Origin: Streptomyces sp. NBC_01463
GTDB lineage: Bacteria > Actinomycetota > Actinomycetes > Streptomycetales > Streptomycetaceae
Assembly: GCA_036227345.1 (NCBI GenBank)
Contig: CP109468.1
Span: forward strand, 8,742,001-8,806,000
Direction: 5' to 3'
Length of the DNA: 64,000 bases
Shown here: in pieces, positions 6,328 to 37,677 of the stretch
Layout of the letters: the number at the start of each line of letters is the position of its first letter
Position numbering within the stretch: the stretch's first letter is position 1
Translations under genes and position numbers: made by a program
The notes under the pieces: generated by a model
Seen by the model: the letters and a program-made list of their open reading frames with translations, nothing else
What the model was told of the DNA's origin: nothing
The model's database searches: none

Positions 6328-6359
6328 TGGCGGTTTGACGACACGTCGTGAAGCCGCCA
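6328..6359. promoter_or_regulatory. 32-bp double-palindrome operator, copy 1
   Basis: Reads TGGCG-GTTTG-ACGACACGTCGT-GAAGC-CGCCA. Outer arms TGGCG/CGCCA and inner arms ACGAC/GTCGT are both perfect inverted repeats about the same centre. It ends 84 bp before the start of the subtilase at 6444. Five other copies in this window share its geometry. Confidence 0.75.
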
Positions 6360-6443
6360 GCGGCGGCCCTTCCGTCTTGCTCCGCCACGCGCCGATGATC
6401 GTGCGAACGTCCCCGGCGCAGCCCAGAGCGGAGCAAGGCAGAG

Positions 6444-9400
6444 ATGACGCACGTCCCGGAACGAAGAGGCCTGTCCCTGGTGATGGCGGCCGCCGTCCTT
6501 GCCGCCGTGGCGGGCGCGGCACCCGCGGCCGTCGCCGCACCGAACCCGAGCTCCACGCAGAGCGCCGGCAGCGTGCTCGCCTCCCTGGACGGCCAGGAGC
6601 GAGAGGCACTGCACCGGATGGCCACCCTGGACCTGGGCGGACTCCACGTCACGGACAAGGCGCTGAAGTCCGCCGACCCCGTCGACGTCATCGTGCAACT
6701 GCGGACGCCGCCCGCCAGGACCGCCCGTCTGCTCGCCGCCGCCGAGGGGCGCAGCCTCAGCGAGACGGACGCGAGCGCCGCGGTCACCGAGGCCCAGAGT
6801 GCGTTCCGTGACGTGCTGAAGGACATGTTCCCCGCGAAGCAGGCGACCGCGGGGAAGTCCGGCCGGCAGTCCCAGGCGCCCCGGCTGCACCGCAGCTACA
6901 CCCACAGCTTCGACGGGGTCAGCCTCAGGCTGCCGGGTGACCGGGTCGCCGAGCTCCTCGACCACGCGGAGGTCGCCTCGGTGTGGCCCGACACAGCCGT
7001 GAAGGCGCTCTCCGACCCGGAGACCACCTCGGCGGGCAGCCAGGAGACCGGCAGCGCCGAGGACGGCGTGGCCCGCCTGCACGCCGAGGGCATCACCGGC
7101 AAGGGCGTCAAGGTCGGCATCATCGACACCGGCATCGACTACCGGCACCCCGACCTCAAGGGCGTGTACAAGGGCGGCTACGACTTCGTCGACGACGACG
7201 CCGACCCGATGGAGACCACGTACGAGGACTGGAAGGCCTCCGGCCAGGCCGAGACCAACGCCGGTTCCACGTACTACACCGAGCACGGCACCCACGTCGC
7301 CGGCATCATCGCCGGGCAGGGCGCCGACGCGAAGGCGCGCGCCGCGCACGGCGTCGCCCCCGACGCCTCCGTGCACGCCTACCGCGTTCTCGGTCCCTAC
7401 GGCAGCGGCAGTACCAGCAACATCCTCGCCGCCATGGACAAGGCGGCCGACGACGGCATGGACGTCGTCAACATGTCGCTGGGCGCCGCCATCAACGACC
7501 CGCTCAGCCCGCAGTCCATAGCCGCCGACAACCTGGTCCTCGCGGGCGTCACCACAGTCATCGCAGCCGGCAACAGCGGCCCCAATGCGGGCACCGTCGC
7601 CACGCCGGCCGCCGCCGCCCTCCCGCTGACGGTCGGCGCCCACTCCGAACCGCTGACCCTGCCCTCGTACAAGCTGAGCGCCGGATCGGTGACGGCGGAG
7701 GGTCGGCTGCTCGCCCAGCCCTACGGCGACGCCCTGGACAAGCTGACGGACGGCTCCCTCGACGTCGTCGACGTCGGCACCGGCACGGCCGCCGGCTACA
7801 CCGGCAAGGACGTCACGGGCAAGGCCGCCCTCGTCCGGCGCGGCGGCATTCCGCTGGACGAGAAGGTGCGGCGCGCACAGGACAAGGGCGCCGCGGCCGT
7901 TCTCCTCGTCAACGACAACGCCGCCGAAGGGCACATCCCGTTCTACATCGGTGAGAACCCGAACTACGTCCCGGCGTTCTCACTGACCGCAGCGGACGGC
8001 GCCGCGCTGATGGCGGCCGGTGCCGACGTCTCGTTCACGTCGGCCGGAACCTTCCGCCTCGGCGACGGGTCGCTGGCCGACTTCAGTTCGCGCGGCCCGG
8101 TCTACGGCAGCGCCGCCATCAAGCCCGAGGTCACCGCGCCGGGCGTCAGCGTCCTGTCGTCCGTCCCGGCCGACATCGTCGACCCGGCCGGCGGCGACTA
8201 CACCTACGCGTACGCCCGCCTCAGCGGAACCTCGATGGCCGCGCCGTACGTCGCCGGCACCGCCGCACTGATGCTCCAGCACGACCACCGACTGAGCCCC
8301 GACGACATCAAGACGGCACTGATGAACACGGCGACGCCGCTGCCCGGCGACGTCAGCGTGTTCGAGGCCGGTGCCGGAGCGGTCGACCCGTACGCGGCCG
8401 TGCACGCCACCACCGCCGTACAGGTCCCGGAGACCACCCCGCACGTCACGGTCGACGGCACGCAGACCGAAGTCGACGCCGTCACCGGCGCGTTGGACCT
8501 CGGTGTGCTGCCGGTGGGGCGTGCCACGAGCCTCAAGCGCACCCTGCGCGTGGTCAACGACAGCGGCAGGCCCGTCACGTACGACGTGCGCACGGCCTTC
8601 AGCCGAGGCTCCGGCGCTTCCGCGGACGCAGACGCCGCGCACATCACCCTGACCACCAGTGACCGGATCAAGGTCGGAGCCCACGGCAAGAAGTCCGTCG
8701 CCGCCGCCCTGCGCGTGCCCGCCGGAGCCCCGGCCGGCTACTACGAGGGCACGGTCACGCTGACACCGCGGAGCGGCAACGGGCTGCCCGCCCTCCACGT
8801 CCCGTTCGGCATGCGTGTCGCCGCCTCCGGGTTCGCGGAGGTCGACATGACCAAGTCCGTCATGTCGACGGGACGGGGTTCCGATGAGGGAGCCGTAGGG
8901 TCCGGCGCGGCCACCTTCAACCTGCGGATGGCCGGACAGCTGCGCAGCATCGACATCTTCCTCACCGACGCCGACGGCAAGGACCTCGGCTACGTCGGCG
9001 GCATCAACACCGTCGGTCTCACCGAGGGTGTCCTCTACGGCCCCGCGACGGTCGGTCCCTGGTACTTCCCGTCGACCGGTGACAAGGCCACCCCGTTCGA
9101 CCCGCGCGGCCGCTTCATCGACGACGGCCACTACAAGCTGCGCATCGTCGGCACGGACGCCGCCGGTGGCACCGACAGCGAACTGCGTGACGTGTACGTG
9201 GACTCGGAACTTCCCTCGTACCAGGACGCCTACGGAGCCTGGGACCCGGCCCACCCCACCGTCGTCGAACAGCCCGCCGACGCCACGACGTTCCCCGTGA
9301 CCGGCACTCTGCTGGACGCCCAGGCCGACGACATCCGCGATGCGGGCCTCGACATCGGCCAGAGCGACAACCGCCTGTACTACTCGCTCTACAGCCCGAA

Positions 9401-10535
9401 CGCACCCGAGGGCAGCTTGCCGGTGGCGTCCGACGGGGCCGTGGACGGGCAGGTCAAGACCCCCGTCGGCCCGCCCGTCACGCATCTCAAGCTGTGGCCC
9501 ACGGACGCGGCGGGCAACATCAGCGGCATCCGCCAGATCAACATCATGAGGAAGGGCACGCCCTACGTGGTCGGCGACGCGAGCGCGTCCTCGGCGCGGG
9601 CCGGGGACCGTGTCACGTACACGCTGACCGCACACGAGCTGAAGAACTGGAAGACGTTCACCTCGCAGATCCGCTACGACGACCGGAACGTCAAGCTCGT
9701 CTCCATCGAACCGACCGCGGAACTGAAGGCCCACGGCCCCTCCACGATCCGCCGCACCGACGTATCGGCCGGATCGTCCTCGTACAGCACGCTCTCCTTC
9801 GATGTCGCCGACAGCGCGGGCCTCAGCGGCGATGCGATGCCGTTGGCGAAGGTGACGTACGAGGTGACCGGTGGGACGGTGACGGCGAACGCCGGCCTGA
9901 GCACGGGCAGCACCTCGGCCGTCGACACGGCGGGCACCAAGACGAACCTGAACATCCTGTTCTACGGTGCGGTGCGGATGCTCAACCCGACCTCTACCTT
10001 CGTCGCCCGCCCGGCCGTCCAGGCCCTGCTGACCCGGGAAGGCGCCTACGACAATGTCCGCGACCACACCGCCGACGGCATCGAGGCGACCCTCACCGCA
10101 CCCGACGGCACCAGCCGCGAGGCCGCCGTGGACAAGGCGGGCCGGATCTCCGTCAGCGGGCTGACCCCGTCCGACAAGCCGTACCGGTTCCGGGTCACGG
10201 CGCCAGGTCACTTCACCTGGACCGAGGACATCGACCTCGGCCTGGACGGAACCTGGGGCGTCGCGGGCAACACCGCCAGTTCGGCGGCCGCCCTCGTCGC
10301 CGGTGACGTCAACGGCGACGACGTCGTCGACGTCCGGGACGCGGCAGCCGTGTACGCGGCGCGGGGGACGGCCGAGCGCGCCGCCGACATCGACCACGAC
10401 GGCACCGTCGGCGCGAAGGACCTCGCCTGGGTGAAGGACAACTACCTGGCGCAGAACAGCAGGGCCGACCGGTACACCGACCCGGTCAAGCGCCTGCGCG
10501 GCAAGTCGCTGGAGGACTACCTGGACCTGATGTAG
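6444..10535 (+). CDS. Secreted S8 subtilisin-like protease with PA insert and dockerin-like C terminus
   Basis: 1363-residue exported serine protease. A signal peptide covers about residues 1-33 (ends AVAAPNP), followed by an I9-type propeptide near 75-185. The S8 triad is complete: Asp228 (IIDTGIDYRHPDL), His281 (EHGTHVAGI) and Ser597 (SGTSMAAPYVAG). The His-Ser gap is large because a PA domain sits near residues 420-540 (TGKAALVRRGG, GAAAVLLVND). Beta-sandwich Fn3-like regions fill the C-terminal half. Residues 1288-1330 carry two calcium-loop repeats, DVNGDDVVDVRD and DIDHDGTVGAKD, separated as in type I dockerins. ATG 6444 follows CGGAGCAAGGCAGAG. It differs in propeptide from the next three subtilases but shares their upstream dyad operator. 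It converges on the LuxR-type regulator with a 25-bp gap. Confidence 0.93.
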   Translation: MTHVPERRGLSLVMAAAVLAAVAGAAPAAVAAPNPSSTQSAGSVLASLDGQEREALHRMATLDLGGLHVTDKALKSADPVDVIVQLRTPPARTARLLAAAEGRSLSETDASAAVTEAQSAFRDVLKDMFPAKQATAGKSGRQSQAPRLHRSYTHSFDGVSLRLPGDRVAELLDHAEVASVWPDTAVKALSDPETTSAGSQETGSAEDGVARLHAEGITGKGVKVGIIDTGIDYRHPDLKGVYKGGYDFVDDDADPMETTYEDWKASGQAETNAGSTYYTEHGTHVAGIIAGQGADAKARAAHGVAPDASVHAYRVLGPYGSGSTSNILAAMDKAADDGMDVVNMSLGAAINDPLSPQSIAADNLVLAGVTTVIAAGNSGPNAGTVATPAAAALPLTVGAHSEPLTLPSYKLSAGSVTAEGRLLAQPYGDALDKLTDGSLDVVDVGTGTAAGYTGKDVTGKAALVRRGGIPLDEKVRRAQDKGAAAVLLVNDNAAEGHIPFYIGENPNYVPAFSLTAADGAALMAAGADVSFTSAGTFRLGDGSLADFSSRGPVYGSAAIKPEVTAPGVSVLSSVPADIVDPAGGDYTYAYARLSGTSMAAPYVAGTAALMLQHDHRLSPDDIKTALMNTATPLPGDVSVFEAGAGAVDPYAAVHATTAVQVPETTPHVTVDGTQTEVDAVTGALDLGVLPVGRATSLKRTLRVVNDSGRPVTYDVRTAFSRGSGASADADAAHITLTTSDRIKVGAHGKKSVAAALRVPAGAPAGYYEGTVTLTPRSGNGLPALHVPFGMRVAASGFAEVDMTKSVMSTGRGSDEGAVGSGAATFNLRMAGQLRSIDIFLTDADGKDLGYVGGINTVGLTEGVLYGPATVGPWYFPSTGDKATPFDPRGRFIDDGHYKLRIVGTDAAGGTDSELRDVYVDSELPSYQDAYGAWDPAHPTVVEQPADATTFPVTGTLLDAQADDIRDAGLDIGQSDNRLYYSLYSPNAPEGSLPVASDGAVDGQVKTPVGPPVTHLKLWPTDAAGNISGIRQINIMRKGTPYVVGDASASSARAGDRVTYTLTAHELKNWKTFTSQIRYDDRNVKLVSIEPTAELKAHGPSTIRRTDVSAGSSSYSTLSFDVADSAGLSGDAMPLAKVTYEVTGGTVTANAGLSTGSTSAVDTAGTKTNLNILFYGAVRMLNPTSTFVARPAVQALLTREGAYDNVRDHTADGIEATLTAPDGTSREAAVDKAGRISVSGLTPSDKPYRFRVTAPGHFTWTEDIDLGLDGTWGVAGNTASSAAALVAGDVNGDDVVDVRDAAAVYAARGTAERAADIDHDGTVGAKDLAWVKDNYLAQNSRADRYTDPVKRLRGKSLEDYLDLM

Positions 10536-10560
10536 CCGGGCGGCCGTCGTGACGGGGTTC

Positions 10561-11391
10561 TCAGACCCAGTTGTTGCGCATCGCGTACCAGCCCAGCTGG
10601 ACGCGTGACGCCACGGCGGCCAGATCCATCAGCGCCCGGACCCGGCGCTGCACCGTACGCGGCGACGTGCCCAGCTGATGGGCCGTCGCCGCGTCCGTGA
10701 GTCCGGACAGCATCAGCTGCAGAATGCGGCGGTCGGTGGGACTCAGGTCGCCGTCCTCGCGCAGATACGGGCGCGAGCGGCGCCACACCGACTCGAACAG
10801 CTCGATCGCCAGAACCACGAGTGGCGGCCGCAGTTCCAGCGACCGTCCCGGCTCCACCTGGACCATGGCCGTCTCACCGTCCGCGATGAGCAGCTTGATC
10901 AACGGCTGGTCGACGACCCGGACCAGGTGGCCCCGTTCCACCCGCAGGTCCAGCGCGCGCAGCGCGGCCGGCTCGGAGAGGAAGTCGCGGTCCACGACGA
11001 TGCGGTAGGAAGCGTCCGGATTGCCGTCCTTGCGCATCGGCGGTCCATTTCCGTCCGGCCGCTGATCGTCCGGTCCGTCCGGCCCGTCCGGCAGGGTCGT
11101 CGGTACGGGCGCCACCGTGTTCGCCCCCGACTGGAAGCCCCACAACGTGGTGCGGGCGGCGTACTCGATGTCGTAGATGCGCCGTGCCTGTTCCTCCCGG
11201 CTCTCCAGGACCCGGACGATATGGTCGTCGCTCCCGCCGGCGCCGGATCCCCACTGCCCGAGCAACCGGGCCAGCGCGGCGTCCGCGCCCCGCAGATGGT
11301 CCTGCAACTCGGTGAGCGACGCGCGCAGGGCAGGACCGGACGGCGCGGAGCCGGCGGGCCGCTGGGAGGGTGTTCCTGGGACGGGCGACAT
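10561..11391 (-). CDS. LuxR-type regulator with PLD-like sensor region (paralogue 1)
   Basis: 276-residue DNA-binding protein. The C terminus is a LuxR/NarL-type helix-turn-helix, with LSPTDRRILQLMLSGLTDAATA followed by LGTSPRTVQRRVRALM, ending GWYAMRNNWV. The middle part (VDRDFLSEPAALRAL, RVVDQPLIKLLIADGETA, ELFESVWRRSRPY) resembles the PLD-like domain of TrmB-type regulators, and the N terminus is predicted helical. ATG 11391 is chosen; the much longer upstream open frame is antisense to the neighbouring subtilase and shows no homology. It is transcribed away from the subtilase at 11587, and a dyad operator lies between the two genes. It is clearly paralogous to the product at 19128-19985. 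Its ligand is unknown. Control of the adjacent proteases is inferred. Confidence 0.88.
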   Translation of the reverse strand: MSPVPGTPSQRPAGSAPSGPALRASLTELQDHLRGADAALARLLGQWGSGAGGSDDHIVRVLESREEQARRIYDIEYAARTTLWGFQSGANTVAPVPTTLPDGPDGPDDQRPDGNGPPMRKDGNPDASYRIVVDRDFLSEPAALRALDLRVERGHLVRVVDQPLIKLLIADGETAMVQVEPGRSLELRPPLVVLAIELFESVWRRSRPYLREDGDLSPTDRRILQLMLSGLTDAATAHQLGTSPRTVQRRVRALMDLAAVASRVQLGWYAMRNNWV

Positions 11392-11478
11392 GCGCCCATT
11401 CTCGCCGCTCCCGTACACACCCGGCCAGGGACCCCTGTCGCGGCACGTCAGCGGCGTGCGGGTCCGCGGTGCCCGCCC

Positions 11479-11510
11479 TGTCGTGATTACGCCATGGCGG
11501 CCTCTCGCCA
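11479..11510. promoter_or_regulatory. 32-bp double-palindrome operator, copy 2
   Basis: Reads TGTCG-TGATT-ACGCCATGGCGG-CCTCT-CGCCA: 4/5 match in the left outer arm and 4/5 pairing in the inner arms. It lies 87 bp from the start of the divergent regulator and 76 bp before the subtilase at 11587, so it could serve both. Confidence 0.6.
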
Positions 11511-11586
11511 GCCCGAACGCCCCTATGAGGCACCGGAATTGGTGACGCTTCTGGTTCAGCACCCTTTCGACCAGGAGTTGTTCCCT

Positions 11587-14500
11587 GTGAGACGCATCAG
11601 ACCATGGCGGACCACCGCCGCCGGGCTCGCGGCCGTTGCCCTGCTGGGCGTCGGCATACCCGCGGCTCAGGCCGGACCCGCCACCACCACACCTGTCACG
11701 GGCAGCGGGACCGACACCGCCCGCACCGTGACCGTCACCCTCGTCACCGGTGACGTCGTCGACGCCCGGGTCGACCACGACGGCCGGGTCCTCTCGGCAT
11801 CGCCCCGCCCCGTGGACGGCACCGACCACCCCGCCGCCGTATGGCAGGACGGCGAGCGCACCTACGTGTTCCCGCAGGGCGTCGAGAAGCTCGTCGACGC
11901 CGGACTCGTCGACGTGCGCCTCTTCGACATCGGCCGGCTCGTCGCCGACGGCTACGACGACGTCCACTCCGCCACCATGCCGGTGATCGTGGAATACGCC
12001 GGGGGCCGCATGCCGCGCACCGCCCGCCCCGGCGTCAGGACGACCGCCGCGCTCGACTCCATCGGCGGCGCCGGACTGGCCGTCACCAAGACGTCCGCCG
12101 CCGACGCCTGGAAGGACCTGGCCCCGGCGAAGGACTCGGCCCGTGCGGCCGGCGGCGTCACCAGGATCTGGCTCGACGCCAAGGTCCGGGGGAACGCCGT
12201 CGACGCACTCGGTACCCCGACCGTCCCCCTCACCGGAGCCGCCACCGCGCACAAGGCGGGGCTCGACGGGTCCGGCGTCAAGGTTGCCGTCCTGGACACC
12301 GGTGTGGACGCCGGCCACCCCGACCTCGCGGGCCGGATCAAGCAGACCAAGGTGTTCGTCCTCAACCAGGACGCCCAGGACCGCACCGGCCACGGCACCC
12401 ACACCGCGTCCACGATCGCCGGAACGGGCGCCGCCTCCGCCGGCCGGTACGCGGGCATGGCCCCGGGCGCAGACCTCCTCGTCGGCAAGGTGCTCGGCGA
12501 CGACGGCTCCGGCGCCCTCAGCGGCATCGTCGACGGCATGGAGTGGGCCGTCGCCGAAGGTGCCCAGATCGTCTCCATGTCCCTCGGTGCTGACGGCTCC
12601 ACCAGCTGCACCGGGCCGGATGTCGAAGCCGTCCAGCGGCTCAGCGGCAAGGCCCTGTTCGTCATCGCGGCGGGCAACGCCTCGCTGCGCGGCACCGTCT
12701 CCACGCCGGGCTGCGCACCCGGAGCCCTCACCGTCGGCGCCGTCGACCGCAAGAACGAGACGGCGTCCTTCTCCAGCCGCGGACCCTCCGCCGACGGGAT
12801 CAACGCCAAGCCCGACATCGCCTCCCAGGGCGTCGACGTCGTCGCGGCCCGCGCGGGCGGCCGTGACGCGCAGGCGTACCAGTCGATGTCCGGCACCTCC
12901 ATGGCAACCCCGCACGTCGCCGGCGGCGCCGCGCTCCTGCTCCAGCAGCACCCGGGCCTGGCCCCCGCCCGCCTCAAGGCGCTGCTCACCTCGTCGGCGA
13001 AGGGCACCGACGCCCCCGTCCTCGACCAGGGCGCCGGGCCGATGGACGTGGCCCGGGCGACCACCCAGCCGGTTGTCGGCGACCCCAATCCGCTGCTGGG
13101 CGACTTCGCGTACCCGCAGGCGGGACTCGACGCGGTCGACCGTGCGGTCACGCTGACCAACGTCACGGACAAGGACGTCACGCTCACCGTCGCCGTCGGC
13201 GACGTCCGCGGCGACGACGGCTCCCGCGTCCGCGGCTTCGCCTCGGCCGCCCGCACCCGGGTCACCGTCCCCGCGAACGGCACCGCCGACGTTCCGGTGC
13301 GCATCGACCCCGCGGCGAAGCTCGACGCCGGCGACTACGGCACCCTCACCGGCCGCCTCGTCGGCACGGGCGCGCACGGCGTGCGCGTCACCGTTCCGTT
13401 CGGCGTGCACCTGGAGGTGCCGTCGGCCGACCTGACGGTCAAGGGCTTCGACCGGCACGGCGACCCGGCGTCGTCGCTCTCGTCATTCCAGCTGTTCGAC
13501 GACCACCGCGACACCGCCGGCAGGTACGTCATCGGCTACCCCGAGGCCGGCAGCACCACGATCCGGGTGCCGCTCGGCAGCTACTCCCTCAGCGGGATGA
13601 TCATGACCAGGGACGAGCCGGGCGACATCGGCAGCGTGGCCTCGGTGTCCCAGCTCTACCGGCCGGAGCTCACCGTCTCCGGAGACACCACCGTCACCCT
13701 GGACGCCCGCGACGCCGAGCGGGTCGCGTGGGACACCGACCGGGCGAGCCGGCCCAACGGCTTCGCGATCGGCCTGACCTACGGACTGGACGACACCGGC
13801 CGGATGCTCGCCGGTTACGCGACCTCGGTTCCGTCGTACGTCAAGGAGATCTACGCCCAGCCGGTCCGGCACGCCGACAAGGTCACCTTCCTCGCCTCCG
13901 TACGGCAGACCGCGCCGCAGGCCCGGTTCACCACGGGCGGCGGACGGGTCCTGGACTCGCTGCCGGTGCAGAAGGCCACCGAGTTCGACGGCCGGGGATC
14001 CGCCGAGGTCGTCGCGATCGGCAAGGGAACGGACGCCAACTTCGCGGCCCAGGACCTGAAGGGCAAGGTCGCCCTGGTGGACGCCGGGACGGGCGGCGGC
14101 AACGCCTACCTGTGGGACACCGCTGCCAGGAAGGCCGGAGCCGCCGGTGTGCTGGCCGCGGTCCCCGACAGCAAGGGCCGCTTCCAGATCACCGGCCCCG
14201 AGGGGGGTCTTCCGCAGGCCACCATCACCTGGGACGACGCCCTCACGCTGAAGGCGGAGGCCGGGCAGACGGGTTCGGCGAAGCTGAGCTGGTCCGGCAC
14301 GGCGACCGCGAACAGTCCGTACGTCTACAACCTGGCGTACACCTCGAAGGACGCGATCCGCCCCGGCATCCAGCGGGTCCGTGACAGCAAGCTCGCCGTC
14401 ACCGACGCCCGTTACCACGTGCAGCAGGCCACGGGCGACACGACGTACTGGTCCGATGTGAAGGTGGGCCTGCCCGGCTTGGCCGCCGTGTGGGCCGGTG

Positions 14501-15339: not shown

Positions 15340-15343
15340 GACA

Positions 15344-15381
15344 CGCCGCGGGGCCACCCCTTCCGGGACGGCCCCGCGGCG
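15344..15381 (+). terminator. First hairpin after subtilase
   Basis: Perfect 12-bp arms CGCCGCGGGGCC and GGCCCCGCGGCG, 5 bases after the stop of the 11587 subtilase. Confidence 0.7.
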
Positions 15382-15449
15382 CACGGACATCGGCCAAGGA
15401 CGGCAGGACGTCCTCGGAATTCGAGGATCACGACATGTACGCCACCGAG

Positions 15450-15480
15450 CCGGGGCCGTCACACGACGGCCCGGCCCTTT
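15450..15480 (+). terminator. Second hairpin after subtilase, with T-run
   Basis: Arms CCGGGGCCGTC and GACGGCCCGG (one bulged G) with loop ACAC, followed by CCCTTT. A back-up terminator isolating the next operator-promoter unit. Confidence 0.65.
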
Positions 15481-15497
15481 CGTGTGCCCCGGCGCGG

Positions 15498-15529
15498 TGG
15501 CGGGTCTACGACGCGTCGTCAAGTCGCCA
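15498..15529. promoter_or_regulatory. 32-bp double-palindrome operator, copy 3 (best inner core)
   Basis: Reads TGGCG-GGTCT-ACGACGCGTCGT-CAAGT-CGCCA. The inner 12 bp are a perfect palindrome, and the outer arms are perfect and extend to GGTGGCG/CGCCACC. It ends 79 bp before the subtilase start at 15609. Confidence 0.8.
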
Positions 15530-15608
15530 CCACTCAAGCGTTGTTGAAGGTCCCTGCGCTGCGAGGATGCGACGAATCCATGCTCCATGAACCTTGGGGG
15601 TTCCCTTC

Positions 15609-18600: not shown

Positions 18601-18905
18601 TCGACGAGTCCGGCGGAGCACGGTTCCTCGCCGTGACGCGAGTCGACCTGGCCGTCCAGCGTGCCCCGGGCGCCGCCGAAGCCGCCGTCGGTCCCACCCG
18701 GCTGGAAGTCAGCTGGGACGACGGGGTCACCTGGCACACCGTCAAGGTGACTGCTGGAAAGCATGGTTCGCCGGAGCACGCCTATCTGATCGCCCCCCTC
18801 CGTGCCTCGTACGCGACCCTGCGCGCCACGGTCGCGGCGAGTGACGGCAGCTCGGTGAAGCAGACCGTCACCCGGGCCTTCCGGGTCAACAAGTCCCTCG
18901 GCTAG
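15609..18905 (+). CDS. Secreted S8 subtilisin-like protease (LVTGDVV propeptide type)
   Basis: 1098-residue exported serine protease. The signal peptide runs from MQVRSIVAAAGLVAATLIP to about residue 24 (HAAGP). The propeptide has the shared PTGDTV and RLFDVKALLEAGY features, slightly diverged from its paralogues. The triad is Asp236 (AVLDSGYDSDHPDL), His268 (GHGTHVAST) and Ser432 (SGTSMATPHVAG). The C-terminal 600 residues are Ig/Fn3-like without an obvious PA domain. ATG 15609 is chosen because the hydrophobic signal begins there; the ribosome site (TTGGGGGTTCCCTTC) is poor and an upstream TTG at 15594 is the only alternative. A dyad operator lies 79 bp upstream and a strong hairpin follows, so it is probably monocistronic. 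Confidence 0.91.
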   Translation: MQVRSIVAAAGLVAATLIPVTVAHAAGPPGPAGTTARPEVPATFTVPLPTGDTVTVERSGAAIRSATVSPAPGREDVSFTTSSVGSDDVSVIPSDADPLLAAGRLDPRLFDVKALLEAGYGTKGTTADGGVGMIVQHAKGAGAARKARTAAGVSARPGHAIPRLGLTSLDPRGRTDAAATWKRLTGTGRSLAGGANKLWLDGRMHVALDKSVPQINAPQAWSDGYTGKGVTVAVLDSGYDSDHPDLAGRVSVSSNFLGGDTAEDDNGHGTHVASTIAGVDSTYRGVAPDASLAVGKVCDNTGSCPTSAVLAGIDWAVNTVHAKVVNMSLGGPADETDPAIAAINDLSASSGTLFVVAAGNDGEYGTGTVGAPAIANATLAVGAVDADDELAAFSSRGPRTGDNAVKPDITAPGVSIVAAKMGGGHTSKSGTSMATPHVAGSAALVAQAHPDWNGEQIKTALMNSAEPNTKRAPYQQGTGRVDVGTAVRQTVLASPANLTTTAGWSDGAGKDTEHTITFTNNGDSATTLDLAIEKPLSPTAQPGNAGQFSVDRDQVTVPAHGTATATVTTRATLLPHGPWSAVLTASQDGTPVTRTILAVNSPVPSHQVTVHAEQRDGTPATGTALLVNRWTGDRYPVRLTAGTGALTVPEAQYWIGMTITSGTGTERTTTMAATSVTPIEDTTVDLDARTAVPVAVDVHDPAARATAVQAALALPAGTGTYTLSVVTTGERAGHTLYATPFAEGDAKYRTFAVFASKDASTQAPSPFFYHVARTWNDGVPAGPAFSVHRRDLTDVRVHLNAQGAPAAGTTGATPDDDALLPLFIDQQVRFPSIVRDYRTAGEWLDRATIAGRQSIATSAQTFGPHALRRLDFAAAVVGPALPAVAAYRVDDTVVWAGTPWFVDGDGTRGGSDWGATGTLKLAKDGQQVSQWSAIGSAKSVAAPAGPGRYTLDADLTRDQAYAALSTRVQAQWAFDSDTDAGAGTVLPLMAVRFTPHGLDESGGARFLAVTRVDLAVQRAPGAAEAAVGPTRLEVSWDDGVTWHTVKVTAGKHGSPEHAYLIAPLRASYATLRATVAASDGSSVKQTVTRAFRVNKSLG

Positions 18906-18915
18906 ACGGGACCCG

Positions 18916-18952
18916 AGCGGGCCGGCTCCTGCTGGGGAGCCGGCCCGCTTTC
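18916..18952 (+). terminator. Strong hairpin after subtilase
   Basis: 14-bp arms AGCGGGCCGGCTCC and GGAGCCGGCCCGCT with a 6-base loop followed by TTTC, 10 bases after the stop codon. Confidence 0.8.
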
Positions 18953-18965
18953 ACGTGCGCGGGGG

Positions 18966-18997
18966 TGGCGAGGATACGACATGACGTACTTTCGCCA
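18966..18997. promoter_or_regulatory. 32-bp double-palindrome operator, copy 4
   Basis: Reads TGGCG-AGGAT-ACGACATGACGT-ACTTT-CGCCA. Outer arms are perfect and inner arms pair 4/5. It lies upstream of the second LuxR-type regulator (130 bp to ATG 19128, 103 bp to an alternative TTG), which suggests autoregulation or cross-regulation within the family. Confidence 0.72.
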
Positions 18998-19127
18998 TCG
19001 TCGCCTCCCGGACAGTGGCGCGCCGCTCAACGGCCGGTAATCCCAAGGTGAACGGGCCCTTCCGTGCTTCCGCCGGGCGGCTCCGGACCCGGGGAGGTGC
19101 TTGTGGCCGTCGGCGAGACTGAGGCCC

Positions 19128-19985
19128 ATGTCCACGTCCAAGCCCCCGCCCGATCCCGGAAATCCCGCGAGGCCCACCGAGGTGCCGGAGCGTGCGTCTC
19201 GTCCGCTCGCCCGCTACCCCGCGCACGACGAGGCGCCGGAGGAGACGGAGGAGAGACTGCGGGCCGTCTTCCGGCAGTTGGGGGAGGACCTGCGGCGCGC
19301 CGAGTCGGCCGTGGCCGGCCTCGTACGCGCCCGGCCCGCGGACGACGGTCTGGTGTACGTGGAGACCGTCGACGGCCCGGTGGACCAAGGGCGCAGGGTC
19401 CTGGAGCTGGAGACCGGCGCCCGGCACACGTTCCAGGCGTTCCTGACCGGACTGAACACCGTCACACCGGTCCCGAGGACCTTGACGTCGCCTGCGGACG
19501 CTGCGCCGCCCGGGTTCGACTCGGTCCCCGGGGTCACCTACCAGCTCCTGGTCGACCGCGACTTCCTCGCCGAACCGGCGGCGGTGGCCGCCCTGGAGGA
19601 GCGGGTGCGCCGAGGTGAGCAGGTCCGGGTGATCGACAGCCCTCTGCTGAAACTGGCCATCGCCGACGGTGAGGTCGGCATGGTCCAGCTCGGCCCGGAG
19701 CGCGCGGTGCTGCTGCGGCAGCCGCTCACCATGCTGGTCACCGAGCTGTTCGCGACCGCGTGGCGGCACTCCCGTCCCTATCTGCGCGAGGTCGCCGAAC
19801 TCGCCCCGGTCGACCGGCAGATCCTCCAGCTGATGCTTTCCGGCCTCACGGACGCGGCCACCGCCAAGCAACTGGGCACCTCGCCGCGCACCGTCCAGCG
19901 AAGACTGCGGGCGCTGATGGACCTGGCGTCGGTGACGTCCCGGCTCCAGCTCGGCTGGTACGCCATGCGCAACAACTGGATGTGA
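19128..19985 (+). CDS. LuxR-type regulator with PLD-like sensor region (paralogue 2)
   Basis: 285-residue regulator paralogous to the product at 10561-11391. It has the same central PLD-like features (LVDRDFLAEPAAVAAL, RVIDSPLLKLAIADGEVGM) and nearly the same C-terminal helix-turn-helix (LTDAATAKQLGTSPRTVQRR), ending GWYAMRNNWM. The N-terminal 60 residues are helical and variable. ATG 19128 matches where the paralogue's similarity begins. TTG 19101 sits 4 bases after GGGGAGG and would add nine residues, so the start is uncertain. The gene is followed at 147 bp by a subtilase on the same strand, with a dyad operator both before the regulator and between the two genes. Confidence 0.87.
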   Translation: MSTSKPPPDPGNPARPTEVPERASRPLARYPAHDEAPEETEERLRAVFRQLGEDLRRAESAVAGLVRARPADDGLVYVETVDGPVDQGRRVLELETGARHTFQAFLTGLNTVTPVPRTLTSPADAAPPGFDSVPGVTYQLLVDRDFLAEPAAVAALEERVRRGEQVRVIDSPLLKLAIADGEVGMVQLGPERAVLLRQPLTMLVTELFATAWRHSRPYLREVAELAPVDRQILQLMLSGLTDAATAKQLGTSPRTVQRRLRALMDLASVTSRLQLGWYAMRNNWM

Positions 19986-20005
19986 CGGCCGGCCGCACCA
20001 CCGGG

Positions 20006-20047
20006 TGGCGAAGCGGCGACAGCGCGCACGCTGTCGCACACTCGCCA
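20006..20047. promoter_or_regulatory. 42-bp variant of the double-palindrome operator, copy 5
   Basis: Reads TGGCG-AAGCG-GCGAC, a 12-bp centre, then GTCGC-ACACT-CGCCA. The half-sites TGGCG-N5-RCGAC are the same as elsewhere, but the centre is 10 bp longer (2 to 12 bp) and itself palindromic, making GCGACAGCG/CGCTGTCGC arms. Outer arms extend to ACCGGgTGGCGA/TCGCCACCGGT. It ends 85 bp before the GTG at 20133. Confidence 0.75.
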
Positions 20048-20132
20048 CCGGTACACCTTGTCGTGGCGCGCGGGCATCCGCGAGGCTCCGGGGATCTCCC
20101 TGCACTTCCCCCGTGTCGACAAGGAGCCCCGC

Positions 20133-23100
20133 GTGCCCGGATCCAGACGGTTCCCTCTACTGGCGGCGGCCGCCGCCCTCGCCCTGAGCGTGAGCGGCCT
20201 CGGCCAGACGCCAGGCGTGGCCGCCCCGTCCGTCCCCGAAAGCCCCGGCCCGGCAGCGCAGCCCACGGAGCATCAGGTCACGCTCGTCACCGGCGACGTG
20301 GTGCGTCTGACCCAGTGGCCGGACGGCCGCCGCTCGGCGATGCTCGTCCCCGCGGAGGGCGGCACCGTCCGCCACAACGCGTTCATCAGCGAATCGTCCG
20401 ACGGCCTGTTCGTCATCCCCGAACAGGCGCAGGAACTGGTCGACGCCGGCAAGGTCGACGCGCGGCTGTTCAACGTCAGCGCCCTGGTCGAGCAGGGGTA
20501 CGACGACGCGCGCTCCGCCGACCTGCCACTGATCGTTTCCTACGGCTCCGGCGCCCGCGCGGCCCGTGCCGCCGTGCCCGACGGCGCCGCGCGCACCCGC
20601 ACGCTGACAAGCCTCGGCGCCGCCGCGCTCCGTGCGCGCAAGAAGCGGGCCCGGACGTTCTGGGACGAGGCGGTGCGCCCCGGAAGCAAGGACGCGAGGA
20701 CCGCGCTCGACGGGGGGATGACCCGGATCTGGCTCGATGCCAAGGTCACGGCCTCCCTCGACCGGAGCGTCCCGCAGATCGGTGCCCCGGCCGCCTGGCA
20801 GGCCGGCTACGACGGCAAGGGCGTGAAGGTCGCCGTGCTCGACAGTGGCATCGACGCGACCCACCCAGACCTGAGCGGCAAGGTCGTCGAGTCCCGCAAC
20901 TTCACCACCGAGGGCGACACCGCGTCGGTGGTCGACAACAACGGCCACGGCACCCATGTCGCCGACACCGTCGTCGGCAGCGGCGCAGCCTCCGGCGGGA
21001 AGTACAAGGGCGTCGCCCCCGGCGCGCAGCTCGTCATCGGCAAGGTGCTCGACAAGAACGGCCAGGGGAGCACGTCCGCCGTCATCGGCGCCATGGAGTG
21101 GGCCGCGCACACCGGTGCCAAGGTGATCAGCATGAGCCTGGGCAGCGGCCCCGGCAACGGGGACGATCCGTCCAGTCTGGCCGTCGAACGCCTCACCGCG
21201 GAGACCGGCGCGCTGTTCGTCATCGCGGCCGGCAACGACGGGCCCGCGCCGAACACCGTCTCCAACCCCGCCGCCGCCCCCTCCGCCCTGGCCGTCGCGG
21301 CCGTCGACCACAACGACGCCACCGCGTCGTTCTCCAGCCGGGGCCCGCTCACCAACGGCTCGCTCAAGCCCGACATCGCCGCGCCCGGCGTCGGTATCGT
21401 CGCGGCCCGCGCCGCCGGTACCTCCAAGGGCCAGATCGTCGACGATCACTACACGGCGCTCAGCGGCACCTCCATGGCCACCCCGCACGTGTCGGGCGCG
21501 GCGGCGATCCTCGCCCAGGAGCACCCCGACTGGTCGCCGCAGCGGCTGAAGGACGCCCTGATGTCGACCTCCGAGTCCGTGGCGGGGGCCACGGGATACG
21601 AGCAGGGCGCGGGTCGGGTGGACATCGGCCGGACAACGGCCCGGACGCTCTTCGCGACCGGTTCCGTCGGTTTCGGCTTCTTCAAGTACGGCGCGGCGAA
21701 CGAGCCGGTCGCCCGCACCGTGACCTACCGCAACGACGGTGACATGGCGCAGATCCTCGACCTGTCCGTACGCGGTGACAACGGCCTCGGCACCCCGCTG
21801 CCCGCCGGCATGGTGACCCCTTCCGCCGACACCGTCACCGTGCCGGCGCACGGCACGGCCGAGGTCGGCCTCACCGCAGATCCCGCGGCCGGACCGAGCG
21901 GCCGGATCAGCGGGACGCTGGCCGCCGAGGCGCGAGACGGATCGGCCACCGTGCACACCGAGTTCGGTCTGGTGAAGGAGGACCGGGCGGTCGCCCTCAC
22001 CGTGCACGCCGTCAACCACACAGGGCAGCTCGCCTACCGCAACAGCGACGTGAGCCTCTACAACCTGGACACCGGCGCCCTCTCCACGCTTCCCCTCAAT
22101 GCCAAGGGCGACGTGGTCTTCCGCGTGAAGCCGGGCACGTACAGCCTGATGGGCTTCCTCGCAGGGTTCGACGAGGCGGGAAAGCAGGTCATCGACTTCA
22201 CGCTGGCCGGTGACCCGCAGATGGTCGTCGACAGCGACCGCACGGTCACCCTCGACGGCACCGCCGCGAAGGAGATCAAGGTCAGGACACCGACCCCGGC
22301 CGAGCACCGCGGTCTGATGGTGGGGTACGAACGCTCCAGCGGATCGCGCTCGGCGACGCAGATCGCGCAGCTCGACCAGTACGTGGACCACGTGTACGCG
22401 CTGCCGACCGAGAAGACCACCCGCGAGAGCTTCACCCTGTTCACCCAGTGGGTGATGTACACCCCCGAGATCCGCATCGACGCGGTCGGACACGGAGCCG
22501 TGCGCAGCCCGGAGTATGTGGTCGGCTCACCGAAGCTGGACGGTGTCTCGCTGCGCCGGGTCGTACCGGTCGGCACCGCCTCGCCGGCCGAGCTCACCGG
22601 CGTGAACCTGTCCGGCAGGATCGCGCTGGTCCGCGCCTCGGCGGACCTCTCGCTCACCGACCAGGTCACGGCGGCGGCCAAGGCCGGAGCCAGGGCGGTG
22701 ATCCTCTACACCACCGAGCCCGGCCGGTACCTCGCCTCGGCGGGTACGGCCACCCTGCCGGTGCCCGCTCTCACGCTCGACGCCGGTCCTGGGCGGACAC
22801 TGGCCCGGCAGGCCGCGTCCGGACACCAGGTCCTGCTGATCGCCGCGGAGGCCGACAGCCGGTACGCCTACGACCTGATGTTCCCGTGGGACGGGCAGAT
22901 CCCCGACGACACCACGCTCAAGGTCGACACGACCACCACCGCCCGGGTCGAGGCCGACTACCACTCCCAGACCGAGCACCCCGCCGCCCAGGACCTTCGC
23001 TGGGCCTACCGGCCGGGCCAGGTGATCGCCACCTCCTGGACCACGCCGCGACCCCTGCCCGCGCCGATCCACCGCACCGAATGGGTGTCGGCGAACGGAG

Positions 23101-23876
23101 TGACGTGGCGTCACCTCGTCTATCTGGACAAGGAATGGGGCAGCCACTACAGCGGCCCGATGACCGACTACAGCCCTGGCCAGGTCGTCAAGGAGGACTG
23201 GCTCAAGCAGGTGGCCCGCCCCGCCGTCCCCGAGAACGACCCGGAGTACATCCCGGTGCGCGGTCCCGCCACGATGAATCCGGCGATCACCCCCTGGACC
23301 GACTCGGAGGCCGGTCACGACGGCGTGTACTCGTACGCCACCGACACGTTCTCCACCCAGCTCTCCGCACACGGCGAGGTGCTGGCGAAGCACATCACGG
23401 CCGTCGGTTCGTTCCCCGCTCCGTACGCCGAGCCGACCGAGTACACGCTGACCATGGACAGTGCTCGAACCGCCGACTACTGGAAGATGTCCACGCGCAC
23501 CCACTCCGAATGGCGCTTCACCTCGGCCCGCCCGGAGTCGGGGACCGCTCCGCTGCCGCTGCTCCAGCTTTACTACGATCTTCCGCTCGACCTGCTCAAC
23601 CGGGCGCCCGCAGGCGAGAAGTTCAGCTTCGCCGTGCGTACCGAGGAGCCCGGCACCACAGGCCCCGTGCGGGCCAGGACGCTGACGGCGGACGTCTCGT
23701 ACGACGACGGAACGACCTGGCACAGGGCGGGGGTGACCGGCGGCGCCGACGGCCGGTTCACCGTCTCCGCCCACCACCCCAAGGGCTCCGGCTTCGTGTC
23801 GTTGCGCATCGGCGCCGAGGACGCCGACGGCAACTCGGTGCAGCAGACCATCACCCGGGCGTACGCCGTGAATTGA
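20133..23876 (+). CDS. Secreted S8 subtilisin-like protease (LVTGDVV propeptide type, PA domain)
   Basis: 1247-residue exported serine protease. The signal peptide starts PGSRRFPLLAAAAALALSVS and ends near residue 30. The propeptide has TLVTGDVVRL and RLFNVSALVEQGYDDARSADLP, closely like the protease at 11587. The triad is Asp237 (AVLDSGIDATHPDL), His272 (GHGTHVADT) and Ser447 (SGTSMATPHVSG). A PA-like domain lies after residue 820 (LSGRIALVRASAD, GARAVILYTTEPG). The C terminus is a long beta-rich region with a YDLPLDLLNR motif also recognisable in the 11587 protein (VLDLPSDLRN). GTG 20133 follows AAGGAGCCCCGC; upstream starts lack a ribosome site. The 42-bp operator lies 85 bp upstream and a strong hairpin follows. 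Confidence 0.92.
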   Translation: MPGSRRFPLLAAAAALALSVSGLGQTPGVAAPSVPESPGPAAQPTEHQVTLVTGDVVRLTQWPDGRRSAMLVPAEGGTVRHNAFISESSDGLFVIPEQAQELVDAGKVDARLFNVSALVEQGYDDARSADLPLIVSYGSGARAARAAVPDGAARTRTLTSLGAAALRARKKRARTFWDEAVRPGSKDARTALDGGMTRIWLDAKVTASLDRSVPQIGAPAAWQAGYDGKGVKVAVLDSGIDATHPDLSGKVVESRNFTTEGDTASVVDNNGHGTHVADTVVGSGAASGGKYKGVAPGAQLVIGKVLDKNGQGSTSAVIGAMEWAAHTGAKVISMSLGSGPGNGDDPSSLAVERLTAETGALFVIAAGNDGPAPNTVSNPAAAPSALAVAAVDHNDATASFSSRGPLTNGSLKPDIAAPGVGIVAARAAGTSKGQIVDDHYTALSGTSMATPHVSGAAAILAQEHPDWSPQRLKDALMSTSESVAGATGYEQGAGRVDIGRTTARTLFATGSVGFGFFKYGAANEPVARTVTYRNDGDMAQILDLSVRGDNGLGTPLPAGMVTPSADTVTVPAHGTAEVGLTADPAAGPSGRISGTLAAEARDGSATVHTEFGLVKEDRAVALTVHAVNHTGQLAYRNSDVSLYNLDTGALSTLPLNAKGDVVFRVKPGTYSLMGFLAGFDEAGKQVIDFTLAGDPQMVVDSDRTVTLDGTAAKEIKVRTPTPAEHRGLMVGYERSSGSRSATQIAQLDQYVDHVYALPTEKTTRESFTLFTQWVMYTPEIRIDAVGHGAVRSPEYVVGSPKLDGVSLRRVVPVGTASPAELTGVNLSGRIALVRASADLSLTDQVTAAAKAGARAVILYTTEPGRYLASAGTATLPVPALTLDAGPGRTLARQAASGHQVLLIAAEADSRYAYDLMFPWDGQIPDDTTLKVDTTTTARVEADYHSQTEHPAAQDLRWAYRPGQVIATSWTTPRPLPAPIHRTEWVSANGVTWRHLVYLDKEWGSHYSGPMTDYSPGQVVKEDWLKQVARPAVPENDPEYIPVRGPATMNPAITPWTDSEAGHDGVYSYATDTFSTQLSAHGEVLAKHITAVGSFPAPYAEPTEYTLTMDSARTADYWKMSTRTHSEWRFTSARPESGTAPLPLLQLYYDLPLDLLNRAPAGEKFSFAVRTEEPGTTGPVRARTLTADVSYDDGTTWHRAGVTGGADGRFTVSAHHPKGSGFVSLRIGAEDADGNSVQQTITRAYAVN

Positions 23877-23892
23877 CGGGAGCGGCCCGCCC

Positions 23893-23936
23893 CGCCGGGT
23901 GCCCCCGGACGCCATCGCGTCCGGGGGCACCCGGCG
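23893..23936 (+). terminator. Strong hairpin after subtilase
   Basis: Perfect 19-bp arms beginning CGCCGGGTGCCC, with a 6-base loop, 16 bases after the stop of the 20133 protease. Confidence 0.8.
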
Positions 23937-23973
23937 TCCCGGCGGCATTCCCATGCCCGTCCGGACGAACGGT

Positions 23974-24005
23974 TGGCGAGAGCGCGTCATGTCGCCAACT
24001 CGCCA
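23974..24005. promoter_or_regulatory. 32-bp double-palindrome operator, copy 6
   Basis: Reads TGGCG-AGAGC-GCGTCATGTCGC-CAACT-CGCCA. Outer arms are perfect and inner arms pair 4/5. A second pairing, GTTGGCGA/TCGCCAAC, overlaps it. It is 106 bp before the small frame at 24112 and 287 bp before the subtilase at 24293. Confidence 0.68.
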
Positions 24006-24111: not shown

Positions 24112-24228
24112 GTGTTGCGGCAACTTCCCTCACGGCGACGCGTCATCGTCGCCTCCTCGCCCCTGGGTGTCATGGGCCTGCCAAGGCAGTCGGGCCCCGG
24201 GCTGACCCCCGCCCCTTCGCCGGCGTGA
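24112..24228 (+). CDS. Possible small ORF or protease-gene remnant (38 aa)
   Basis: GTG 24112 (or TTG 24115) lies 5-8 bases after AAGGAG and opens a 38-residue frame beginning LRQLPSRRRVIVASSPLG. The basic-then-hydrophobic start recalls a signal peptide, but the hydrophobic run is short and proline-rich and the frame then stops. It could be a leader peptide, a decayed N terminus of a lost subtilase, or chance. It was kept because its ribosome site and its distance from the dyad operator resemble those of the true protease starts. Confidence 0.25.
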   Translation: MLRQLPSRRRVIVASSPLGVMGLPRQSGPGLTPAPSPA

Positions 24229-27883: not shown

Positions 27884-27902
27884 CCCGATGAGGAATGCAG
27901 AC

Positions 27903-34100: not shown

Positions 34101-34171
34101 GGGGTTCTCCCAGGGTGGTTCTGTACAGGGGTGCGAGAGGACGTACGGGCCGTCCGGCTGGGCCCACTGGC

Positions 34172-35794: not shown

Positions 35795-35845
35795 GGGTCT
35801 TCGGTGCTCCCGTACGGGTGGGCGCCTTGTCAGTCGCCTGGGAAA

Positions 35846-35862
35846 GTTCTAAAATATGGAAC
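35846..35862. promoter_or_regulatory. Candidate IclR operator at the OPT promoter
   Basis: 17-bp site GTTCTA-AAATA-TGGAAC, arms pairing 5/6. On the minus strand it overlaps a TATTTT-like -10 about 55 bases before the transporter start. A site with the same geometry precedes the AroM gene (37536-37552). Nearby, TATGGA at 35855 and TCCATA at 35894 form a wider inverted pair, and GGATC is repeated in between. Confidence 0.55.
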
Positions 35863-36047
35863 AGCATCTGAATATCTGGATCTCTTTGGATCATCCATAT
35901 GGCGCATTCCGCCGTCAAGGGCTGAGCCGGGATTCTCGAAATGTGGGCGGTCCGGAGTCGCGGACGAGGGGCGGTCGAGGGGGCGCCCGGGCGCCCTTTA
36001 CGATCGGACGACACGACTCGGGTGAGCTCGGGGGAGGCGGGAGAACG

Positions 36048-36830: not shown

Positions 36831-36835
36831 GGCCC

Positions 36836-37516: not shown

Positions 37517-37531
37517 GGCGCCTCATCTTTC

Positions 37532-37560
37532 ATGAGTTCCAGATAATGGATATGAGTTCC
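37532..37560. promoter_or_regulatory. Candidate IclR operator and 20-bp-spaced direct repeat at the AroM promoter
   Basis: ATGAGTTCC occurs at 37532-37540 and again at 37552-37560, 20 bp apart (two helical turns). GTTCCA-GATAA-TGGATA at 37536-37552 has the same 6-5-6 layout as the site at the OPT promoter. A CATTAT-like -10 on the minus strand falls inside. Confidence 0.5.
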
Positions 37561-37630
37561 GAATTAAGGTAGTCGGAGGCTCCGCGTGTGGGTAGAGGTC
37601 CGTGACGCCCGGACACTCACACGGCCTCTG

Positions 37631-37675: not shown

Positions 37676-37677
37676 GA

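What the first reader, a model, noticed from the sequence alone, without database searches (positions are those of the whole stretch)
6328..24005. A recurring 32-bp double palindrome in front of island subtilases and their regulators
Six sites (6328, 11479, 15498, 18966, 20006, 23974) read as TGGCG-N5-RCGAC half-sites in inverted pairs. Five are exactly 32 bp: TGGCG-N5-(12-bp palindrome, consensus ACGACRYGTCGT)-N5-CGCCA. TGGCG is exact in 11 of 12 half-sites and RCGAC in 8 of 12. Spacing to the downstream start is 76-86 bp for four protease genes. One copy sits between a LuxR-type regulator and a subtilase, and one precedes the paralogous regulator. Geometry kept while the N5 spacers vary freely is the mark of a protein-binding site rather than a duplicated promoter. 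I infer a protease regulon controlled by the local PLD-like/LuxR regulators. I know of no description of this operator but could not search.
Basis: partly seen in the sequence, partly recalled or inferred. Interest (0 to 1): 0.88.

Follow-up and report, generated by a model that had tools for sequence, protein, structure and literature searches.

The report
Shared switch for secreted protease genes
A short mirrored DNA sequence, made of two matching 16-letter units side by side, sits just ahead of many secreted-protease genes and their neighbouring regulator genes in Streptomyces, and it looks like the landing site through which a little-studied family of regulators switches those proteases on together.

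Summary
The six sites are real. A weight matrix trained only on sites from other genomes finds exactly these six in the window (32.6-39.5 bits; next 10.2; reversed control 2.1). I re-parse them: each 32-bp site is two abutting 16-bp inverted repeats, TGNCG-N6-CGNCA; the 42-bp site is the same two, one helical turn (10 bp) further apart. The strict 32-bp form occurs five times in the genome: four here and one 4.7 Mb away, 77 bp before another subtilase. Of 40 strict sites in 19 other same-genus genomes, 35 precede a subtilase or a regulator of this family. Ten of the genome's 22 subtilase genes have a site of 20 bits or more upstream. The neighbouring regulators join a degenerate phospholipase-D/TrmB-like domain to a LuxR DNA-binding domain. 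A commoner relative, RegC, has its own operator version beside its gene (67 of 71 hits). In five of eight promoter families the operator precedes a -10-like element by 34-37 nt, suggesting activation. Binding, direction and signal are inferred. The open-licence papers I could search showed no description.

The parts
6328..6359 (.). Operator 1: TGGCGGTTTGACGACA|CGTCGTGAAGCCGCCA, 84 bp before subtilase S1
   Evidence: PWM 39.1 bits; conserved in orthologous islands
6444..10535 (+). Subtilase S1 (1363 aa; I9 propeptide, S8, PA, dockerin-like)
   Evidence: Pfam
10561..11391 (-). RegA, 276 aa regulator (LuxR-type HTH; PLD/TrmB-like domain by its 58% identity to RegB), divergent from S2
   Evidence: fold predicted for RegB
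11479..11510 (.). Operator 2: TGTCGTGATTACGCCA|TGGCGGCCTCTCGCCA, between divergent RegA (87 bp) and S2 (76 bp); here TGTCG is outer and TGGCG inner
   Evidence: PWM 32.6 bits
11587..15339 (+). Subtilase S2 (1250 aa)
15498..15529 (.). Operator 3: TGGCGGGTCTACGACG|CGTCGTCAAGTCGCCA, 79 bp before S3
   Evidence: PWM 39.5 bits
15609..18905 (+). Subtilase S3 (1098 aa)
18966..18997 (.). Operator 4: TGGCGAGGATACGACA|TGACGTACTTTCGCCA, before RegB (130 bp to ATG 19128; 103 bp to TTG 19101)
   Evidence: PWM 37.0 bits
19128..19985 (+). RegB, 285 aa, paralogue of RegA (58% identity)
   Evidence: AlphaFold model mean pLDDT 82.9, pTM 0.63
20006..20047 (.). Operator 5, 42 bp: TGGCGAAGCGGCGACA-GCGCGCACGC-TGTCGCACACTCGCCA, the same two 16-mers 10 bp apart; 85 bp before S4
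   Evidence: PWM 35.3 bits with gap 10; 42-bp form kept in three other genomes, G070, G179, G313
20133..23876 (+). Subtilase S4 (1247 aa; S8 + PA)
23974..24005 (.). Operator 6: TGGCGAGAGCGCGTCA|TGTCGCCAACTCGCCA, now 287 bp before S5; 106 bp before the stump of a lost subtilase
   Evidence: PWM 39.0 bits
24112..24228 (+). 38-aa ORF (VLRQLPSRRRVIV...) read as the signal-peptide stump of a deleted subtilase (S5') that operator 6 served
   Evidence: intact paralogue at this place in G179 (L163) and G313 (L137), C-terminal piece in G070 (L162):
24293..27883 (+). Subtilase S5 (1196 aa; S8, carboxypeptidase-regulatory repeats, malectin)
27888..31487 (+). Subtilase S6 (1199 aa), starts 4 bp after S5 ends; no operator of its own, probably one operon with S5

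Best explanation
The element is the DNA operator of a family of PLD/TrmB-like LuxR-type regulators, in this island RegA and RegB, and it ties together a regulon of secreted subtilases. It consists of two 16-bp inverted repeats, TGNCG-N6-CGNCA, set head to tail. SHOWN BY SEQUENCE: the repeat structure; its place before subtilase and regulator genes here and in other genomes; a fixed distance to a -10-like element in five of eight promoter families; the 10-bp jump of the 42-bp form. INFERRED: each 16-mer binds one regulator dimer through the LuxR helix-turn-helix (the two pentamer centres are 11 bp apart, about one helical turn), so a site holds two dimers on the same DNA face, directly abutting or one turn apart. 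Bound just upstream of the -35 region (about -78 to -47 if the -10-like element is right), they contact RNA polymerase and activate. RegA and RegB have the operator at their own promoters and so probably regulate themselves. The degenerate PLD domain (no HKD histidine) is the likely sensor of a small ligand, perhaps peptides or another product of protein digestion. Other members (RegC, RegD) use the same plan with their own operator variants or targets.
Against: No binding, footprint or expression data exist here. Over 392 genomes the raw count of the strict pattern (45) is not far above its reversed control (33, my sum of the listed column, at most 2 per genome; contexts of control hits not examined): context and concentration carry the case, not the total. 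G312 has two sites before subtilases but no close RegA/RegB homologue; its best match is RegD-like (126.7 bits). RegD in this genome has no recognisable operator of its own within the 10 kb read. The Nocardioides locus L048 has a RegA homologue and a subtilase but no site by the pattern. The -10 strings were chosen by eye per promoter family; RegB, S2 and S4 promoters, looked at only by eye, do not show the fixed distance. Orthologous islands make many sites non-independent, and one of the 35 (G070) precedes a broken subtilase. RegB's GerE score (21.2) is under Pfam's cut-off (23.5).
Confidence: 0.78

Rival explanations
1. Same operator and same regulators, but they act as repressors that shut the proteases off until a ligand releases them.
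For: Operators beside their own regulator genes are common for repressors (general knowledge); the sensor-like domain would suit ligand release (fold). By eye, three promoters (RegB, S2, S4) do not keep the fixed distance to a -10-like element.
Against: In five promoter families the -10-like element starts 34-37 nt after the operator, which puts the operator upstream of the -35 region rather than over it, the usual place of an activator.
Confidence: 0.2
2. The sites are AdpA sites: AdpA controls many Streptomyces secreted proteases and binds TGGCSNGWWY.
For: 87 of 92 outer pentamers read TGGCG; 46 of 92 outer decamers match 9 of 10 AdpA positions, against about 12% expected given TGGCG (expectation worked out by hand). 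Consensus taken from passages of PMC4021200 and PMC12466573.
Against: Only 2 of 92 are full matches (1.4 expected). The excess comes largely from A/T at the centre of each 16-mer. S. venezuelae AdpA prefers TGGCCG, and only 3 of 92 match that consensus at 9 of 10, none fully. AdpA does not explain the equally conserved inner pentamers, the 0/10-bp spacing, or why two or more strict sites occur in only 8 of 392 genomes of a genus where AdpA is (recalled) general.
Confidence: 0.06
3. The operator is real, but RegA and RegB are not the main readers: RegD-like or RegC-like family members elsewhere in the genome bind it.
For: G312 has two sites without RegA/RegB. This genome has RegC at 1.9 Mb and RegD 8 kb from the unlinked site. 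HTH recognition helices are nearly the same across the family.
Against: Repeated sites track RegA/RegB in the 295-genome comparison; RegC's adjacent operator differs at an inner pentamer (mostly GGCCA) and at the outer right end.
Confidence: 0.15
4. A dispersed repeat or a promoter duplicated together with the protease genes, with no protein bound.
For: The subtilases of the island are paralogues and lie in tandem.
Against: Geometry and four pentamers are kept while positions 7, 9, 22, 23 and 26 vary. The site precedes unrelated gene types (regulators, distant subtilases). One site has a 10-bp insertion exactly between the 16-mers. Operator 6 outlived the loss of its own protease.
Confidence: 0.02

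Closest known systems
PAS-LuxR regulators of Streptomyces (PimM type; passages of the review PMC9774167 seen)
   Same: LuxR-type HTH; a 16-bp palindrome with A/T at its centre (CTVGGGAWWTCCCBAG); regulates a set of functionally linked promoters; site described as lying in the -35 region.
   Different: Pentamer TGNCG instead of CTVGGG; two palindromes in tandem; site apparently further upstream; sensor is PLD/TrmB-like, not PAS; targets are secreted subtilases, not antibiotic genes.
TrmB / TrmBL2 family (archaeal; PDB 3qph, 2f5t, 5bpi)
   Different: RegA and RegB lack the TrmB HTH (no PF01978 match at E<=1) and have a C-terminal LuxR HTH instead.
AdpA regulon of Streptomyces (passages of PMC12466573, PMC4021200 seen)
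   Same: Controls secreted-protease genes; TGGC-type core.
   Different: Different protein family (AraC type, recalled); consensus not met; no tandem 16-bp architecture.
NarL/GerE/TraR-type LuxR HTH proteins
   Different: Different sensor domain; their operators (recalled) differ in sequence.

Membership tests
LuxR/GerE helix-turn-helix family | C-terminal GerE-type HTH by sequence | tested here: met
   RegA GerE 24.5 bits (cut-off 23.5); RegB 21.2, below cut-off, but Sigma70_r4_2 28.2 over its own 25.7; 43 of 50 family members match GerE at E<=0.01
LuxR/GerE helix-turn-helix family | LuxR HTH fold | tested here: met
TrmB family | N-terminal TrmB winged HTH (PF01978) | tested here: not met
   RegA and RegB: none among matches at E<=1. 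In the wider family 21 of 50 have it
TrmB family | PLD-like effector domain | tested here: met
Active phospholipase D / HKD nucleases | HxKx4D catalytic motif | tested here: not met
   K175 in 49 of 50 and D180 in 50 of 50, but the histidine position is Leu 40, Pro 10 of 50
AdpA regulon | TGGCSNGWWY at the site | tested here: not met
   full match in 2 of 92 outer decamers, 1.4 expected; 46 of 92 match 9 of 10
PAS-LuxR (PimM) regulon | CTVGGGAWWTCCCBAG and a PAS domain | tested here: not met
   sites read TGNCG-N6-CGNCA; no PAS among Pfam matches of RegA/RegB at E<=1
Operator of RegA/RegB | protein binds the site in vitro or in vivo | not testable with these tools
   needs EMSA, footprinting or ChIP

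The most novel reading that the evidence does not exclude
Streptomyces and some relatives carry a paralogue-partitioned control system for exoproteases: a family of PLD/TrmB-sensor LuxR activators, each reading four YGNCG quarter-sites arranged as two 16-bp dimers (abutting or one turn apart), which together govern nearly half of a genome's subtilases in response to products of extracellular protein breakdown. It would be a protein-feeding counterpart of the sugar-sensing TrmB system.
Probability: 0.35. Interest if true: 0.8.

Novelty: new variant of a known kind. Interest (0 to 1): 0.62.

Why it matters
Streptomyces are major decomposers and industrial secretors, and their secreted proteases affect yields of secreted products (general knowledge). 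A S. lividans multi-omics study says the mechanism controlling the secretome proteases remains unknown and that their clustering pattern raises the possibility of shared transcriptional control (PMC5994538, passage). This work gives a concrete operator, candidate regulators and a list of target promoters, so the question becomes directly testable. It also links a TrmB-type sensor domain joined to a LuxR HTH with a defined tandem operator.

Tried and rejected
Half-site counting alone: not informative (26 against 37 expected). The broad consensus with up to 3 mismatches is no better than its reversed control in this genome (8 against 13). The first genus scan mixed real sites with a recurrent TGGCGGGCGCGCGACGAGTCGC-type match that looks coding and lacks the R-Y centre; its neighbourhood was not studied, and it falls away with the CGNCRYGNCG core. 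Negatives kept in the count of 40: G038 and G362 (near-identical site before a gene that looks by eye like a PIG-L deacetylase), G234 (low-complexity repeat), G028 (between an ORF that looks by eye like DUF3000 and a LuxR-type response regulator); none of these names comes from a family search. Undetermined: G313:C344 (contig end). The G237 near-match (L025) lies 121 bp before an ORF that looks by eye like a sedolisin-type protease; not verified, not counted. In other genera of the class 6 of 354 genomes have one strict hit each; 2 of 6 precede a subtilase and 4 do not. Matrix at gaps other than 0 and 10 in the window: three hits of 15.1-17.9 bits, each sharing a 16-mer or part of one with a known site. 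Operator near 27 regulator loci within 1.5 kb by the strict score: 2 at 14 of 16 or better at gap 0, because RegC's version departs at inner and right-end pentamers; that version was found by aligning 8 intergenic regions. A RegC protein search timed out. Literature searches (open-licence PMC only) showed no description of this operator; I saw the listings, plus passages of PMC12466573, PMC4021200, PMC8594442, PMC9195005, PMC9774167 and PMC5994538. The SCO3388 'TrmB-like' protein in PMC8594442 was not compared with this family by sequence.
Full report
OBSERVATION. The window is G000:C1:8742001-8806000 of a 9.07-Mb genome. One-mismatch half-sites alone are not enriched in the window (26 found, 37.1 +/- 5.5 expected). 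The paired element is. The outer frame TGGCG-N22-CGCCA occurs 17 times in the genome; only five of the 17 also carry the RCGAC/GTCGY-like centre, and four of those are in this window. With the full consensus and at most one mismatch the genome gives the same five, reversed control 0 (row G000). Allowing the middle gap to run from 0 to 22 gives six places, all of them sites discussed here with gap 0 or 10, reversed control 0.

A BETTER PARSE. Written out, every site is two 16-bp inverted repeats placed head to tail: TGNCG-N6-CGNCA | TGNCG-N6-CGNCA (in some sites the two bases at the junction read CG-type, so the inner pentamers are YGNCG). This reading explains three things. Second, the 42-bp site at 20006 is the same two repeats with exactly 10 extra bases between them, one turn of the helix. 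Third, A/T is favoured at the middle of each 16-mer (36 of 46 at position 8, 43 of 46 at position 25). Over 46 distinct sites the outer pentamers are TGGCG in 87 of 92 and the inner ones are mostly YGNCG (many of the 46 were found by a pattern that demanded parts of this, so the figures for demanded positions are partly circular).

INDEPENDENT MATRIX TEST. A 32-position matrix was built from 24 sites, none from this genome. In the 64-kb window, at gaps 0 and 10, it gives the six sites at 39.5, 39.1, 39.0, 37.0, 35.3 (gap 10) and 32.6 bits; the next best is 10.2 and the best on the reversed window is 2.1. Several training sites are orthologues of the window's sites, so recovery was expected; the clean gap between 10.2 and 32.6 was not. 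The genome has 22 subtilase-domain matches (PF00082). In their 85 kb of surrounding DNA the matrix finds hits of 20 bits or more at 10 of 22, each at the upstream end of the gene: S1, S2, S3, S4, S5, the unlinked L21a-type gene (39.4), the RegC-adjacent gene (24.7), and three weaker new ones at loci L238 (22.1), L243 (20.9) and L248 (22.4). The reversed control's best is 11.1.

OTHER GENOMES. The strict 32-bp core was run over 392 genus genomes: 20 genomes, 45 sites. Without this genome: 19 genomes, 40 sites. I looked at the context of all 40 (some only on 3-kb loci): 35 lie before a subtilase or a family regulator, recognised by tblastn with the window's and L021's proteins; 4 do not (G038 and G362, near-identical sites before a PIG-L-like gene; G234, a low-complexity repeat; G028); one sits at a contig end (G313:C344). 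Of the 35, G070:24697 precedes a broken subtilase (the S5' remnant) and G312's second site is 344 bp before its S5. Several were unlinked to any island, for example G179:613412, 72 bp before an L21a-type subtilase; G171:188892, 79 bp before an S3 orthologue; and six genomes (G015, G162, G185, G249, G270, G385) with a site 72-94 bp before an L21b-type subtilase. The total of 45 is not far above the reversed control (33, my sum), so the argument rests on context and on concentration (up to 7 per genome; control at most 2). A scan of the class found one strict hit in each of 6 of 354 genomes outside the genus; 2 of 6 precede a subtilase.

CO-OCCURRENCE. In the 295 genomes searched for the regulators, close RegA/RegB homologues (387 bits or more; the next match is 130) are in four: G000, G070, G171 and G179. 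In the site search, those same four are the only ones of the 295 with two or more strict sites; ten others have one. Three of the four share the whole island and G171 has part of it, so these are not four independent events. In the 97 further genomes, four have two or more sites; three of them (G313, G335, G346) have RegA/RegB and one (G312) does not, having a RegD-like protein instead. Two more of the 97 (G362, G385), with one site each, have no RegA/RegB; the other 91 were not tested for the regulators.

THE WIDER FAMILY. Relatives of RegA/RegB at E<=1e-25 are in 190 of 295 genomes. One common member, here called RegC, often lies divergently beside a subtilase (8 of 26 wider-family loci have an L21b-type match within 1.5 kb). 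Alignment of those 8 intergenic regions shows one conserved 32-bp block, roughly TGGCGGRAANNRGCCACGGCGYAAACCCGCC, with the same 16+16 plan. A scan of 150 genomes with TGGCGN6SGCCACGGCGN6CGCC gave 71 sites in 70 genomes; 47 lie 226-373 bp from a regulator match in the (truncated) list. Of the 24 left, 20 were fetched and 19 were beside RegC; one search places one more (G015) 289 bp from a regulator. So at least 67 of 71 are beside RegC; G006 and G028 are not, the other G015 site precedes an L21b-type subtilase, and G134 was not looked at.

PROMOTER GEOMETRY. Start codons lie 72-94 bp after many operators. More telling, a -10-like element starts 34-37 nt after the operator in 10 of 12 L21a-type, 6 of 6 S5'-type, 6 of 8 L21b-type, 9 of 9 S3 and 7 of 7 S1 promoters examined (strings chosen by eye for each promoter family; two of the nine S1 promoters, L042 and L165, were left out), and a TTG- or GTGAC-type -35 starts 15 nt after it in 7 of 9 S3 and 5 of 6 S5' promoters by that script. 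RegB, S2 and S4 promoters, judged by eye, do not show this. If the -10 reading is right the operator covers about -78 to -47, upstream of the -35 region. I therefore favour activation, at about 0.65 on its own.

AN EVOLUTIONARY DETAIL. Operator 6 looks out of place (287 bp before S5). In G179 and G313 an intact extra subtilase stands between it and S5; in G070 only its C-terminal end is recognisable; here only a 38-aa signal-peptide stump remains (24112-24228). The protease was lost and its operator stayed, now upstream of the S5-S6 pair.

ISLAND CONTEXT. Beyond the subtilases lie an M20 peptidase, an OPT oligopeptide transporter, a seventh subtilase and an M4 peptidase, none with an operator by the matrix. 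This fits an island for feeding on external protein, but is only circumstantial evidence about the signal.

STATUS. Shown: the element, its distribution, its promoter placement, the predicted domain plan of the regulators. Inferred: binding by RegA/RegB, two dimers per site, activation, sensing of breakdown products. In nine open-licence literature searches I saw no description; subscription papers were not searchable. A S. lividans study states that the mechanism controlling its secretome proteases remains unknown and that shared transcriptional control is possible (PMC5994538, passage).

Noticed in passing
window 24112-24228: 38-aa ORF that is the remaining signal-peptide stump of a lost subtilase; intact in G179 (L163) and G313 (L137), C-terminal piece only in G070 (L162).
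   Followed up: yes
window 31583-49661: Protein-degradation neighbourhood: M20 peptidase (31583-33109 -), OPT oligopeptide transporter (34172-35794 -), seventh subtilase without operator (40627-43161 -), alkyl sulfatase (44447-46342 -), M4 peptidase (46563-49661 -).
   Followed up: partly
G000:C1:4057456-4066484 (L021, L217): Second, unlinked regulon locus: operator, L21a subtilase, L21b subtilase (weak 20.9-bit site), convergent RegD regulator (about 315 aa) with no operator of its own found.
   Followed up: yes
G000:C1:1904000-1913000 (L210): RegC with its own 32-bp operator 61 bp upstream, divergent from a further subtilase.
   Followed up: yes
P0096 (metagenome protein): 427-aa protein reading as the N-terminal part of a subtilase joined to the C-terminal half of a RegA/RegB-like regulator; likely assembly chimera or deletion fusion.
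   Followed up: no
L025 (G237:C83:13869-13900): One-mismatch operator about 121 bp before an ORF that looks by eye like a sedolisin-type protease; suggests the regulon may reach beyond subtilases.
   Followed up: partly
L037 and L148 (G038, G362): Strict operator match 46 bp before a gene that looks by eye like a PIG-L deacetylase, with the divergent gene on the other side differing in the two genomes; chance or a different regulator of the family.
   Followed up: partly
L022-L024, L026, L027, L030-L033, L035, L038: Recurrent 32-bp near-match TGGCGGGCGCGCGACGAGTCGCTGGGCCGCCA (with variants) in eleven genomes, probably a conserved coding stretch unrelated to the operator.
   Followed up: no
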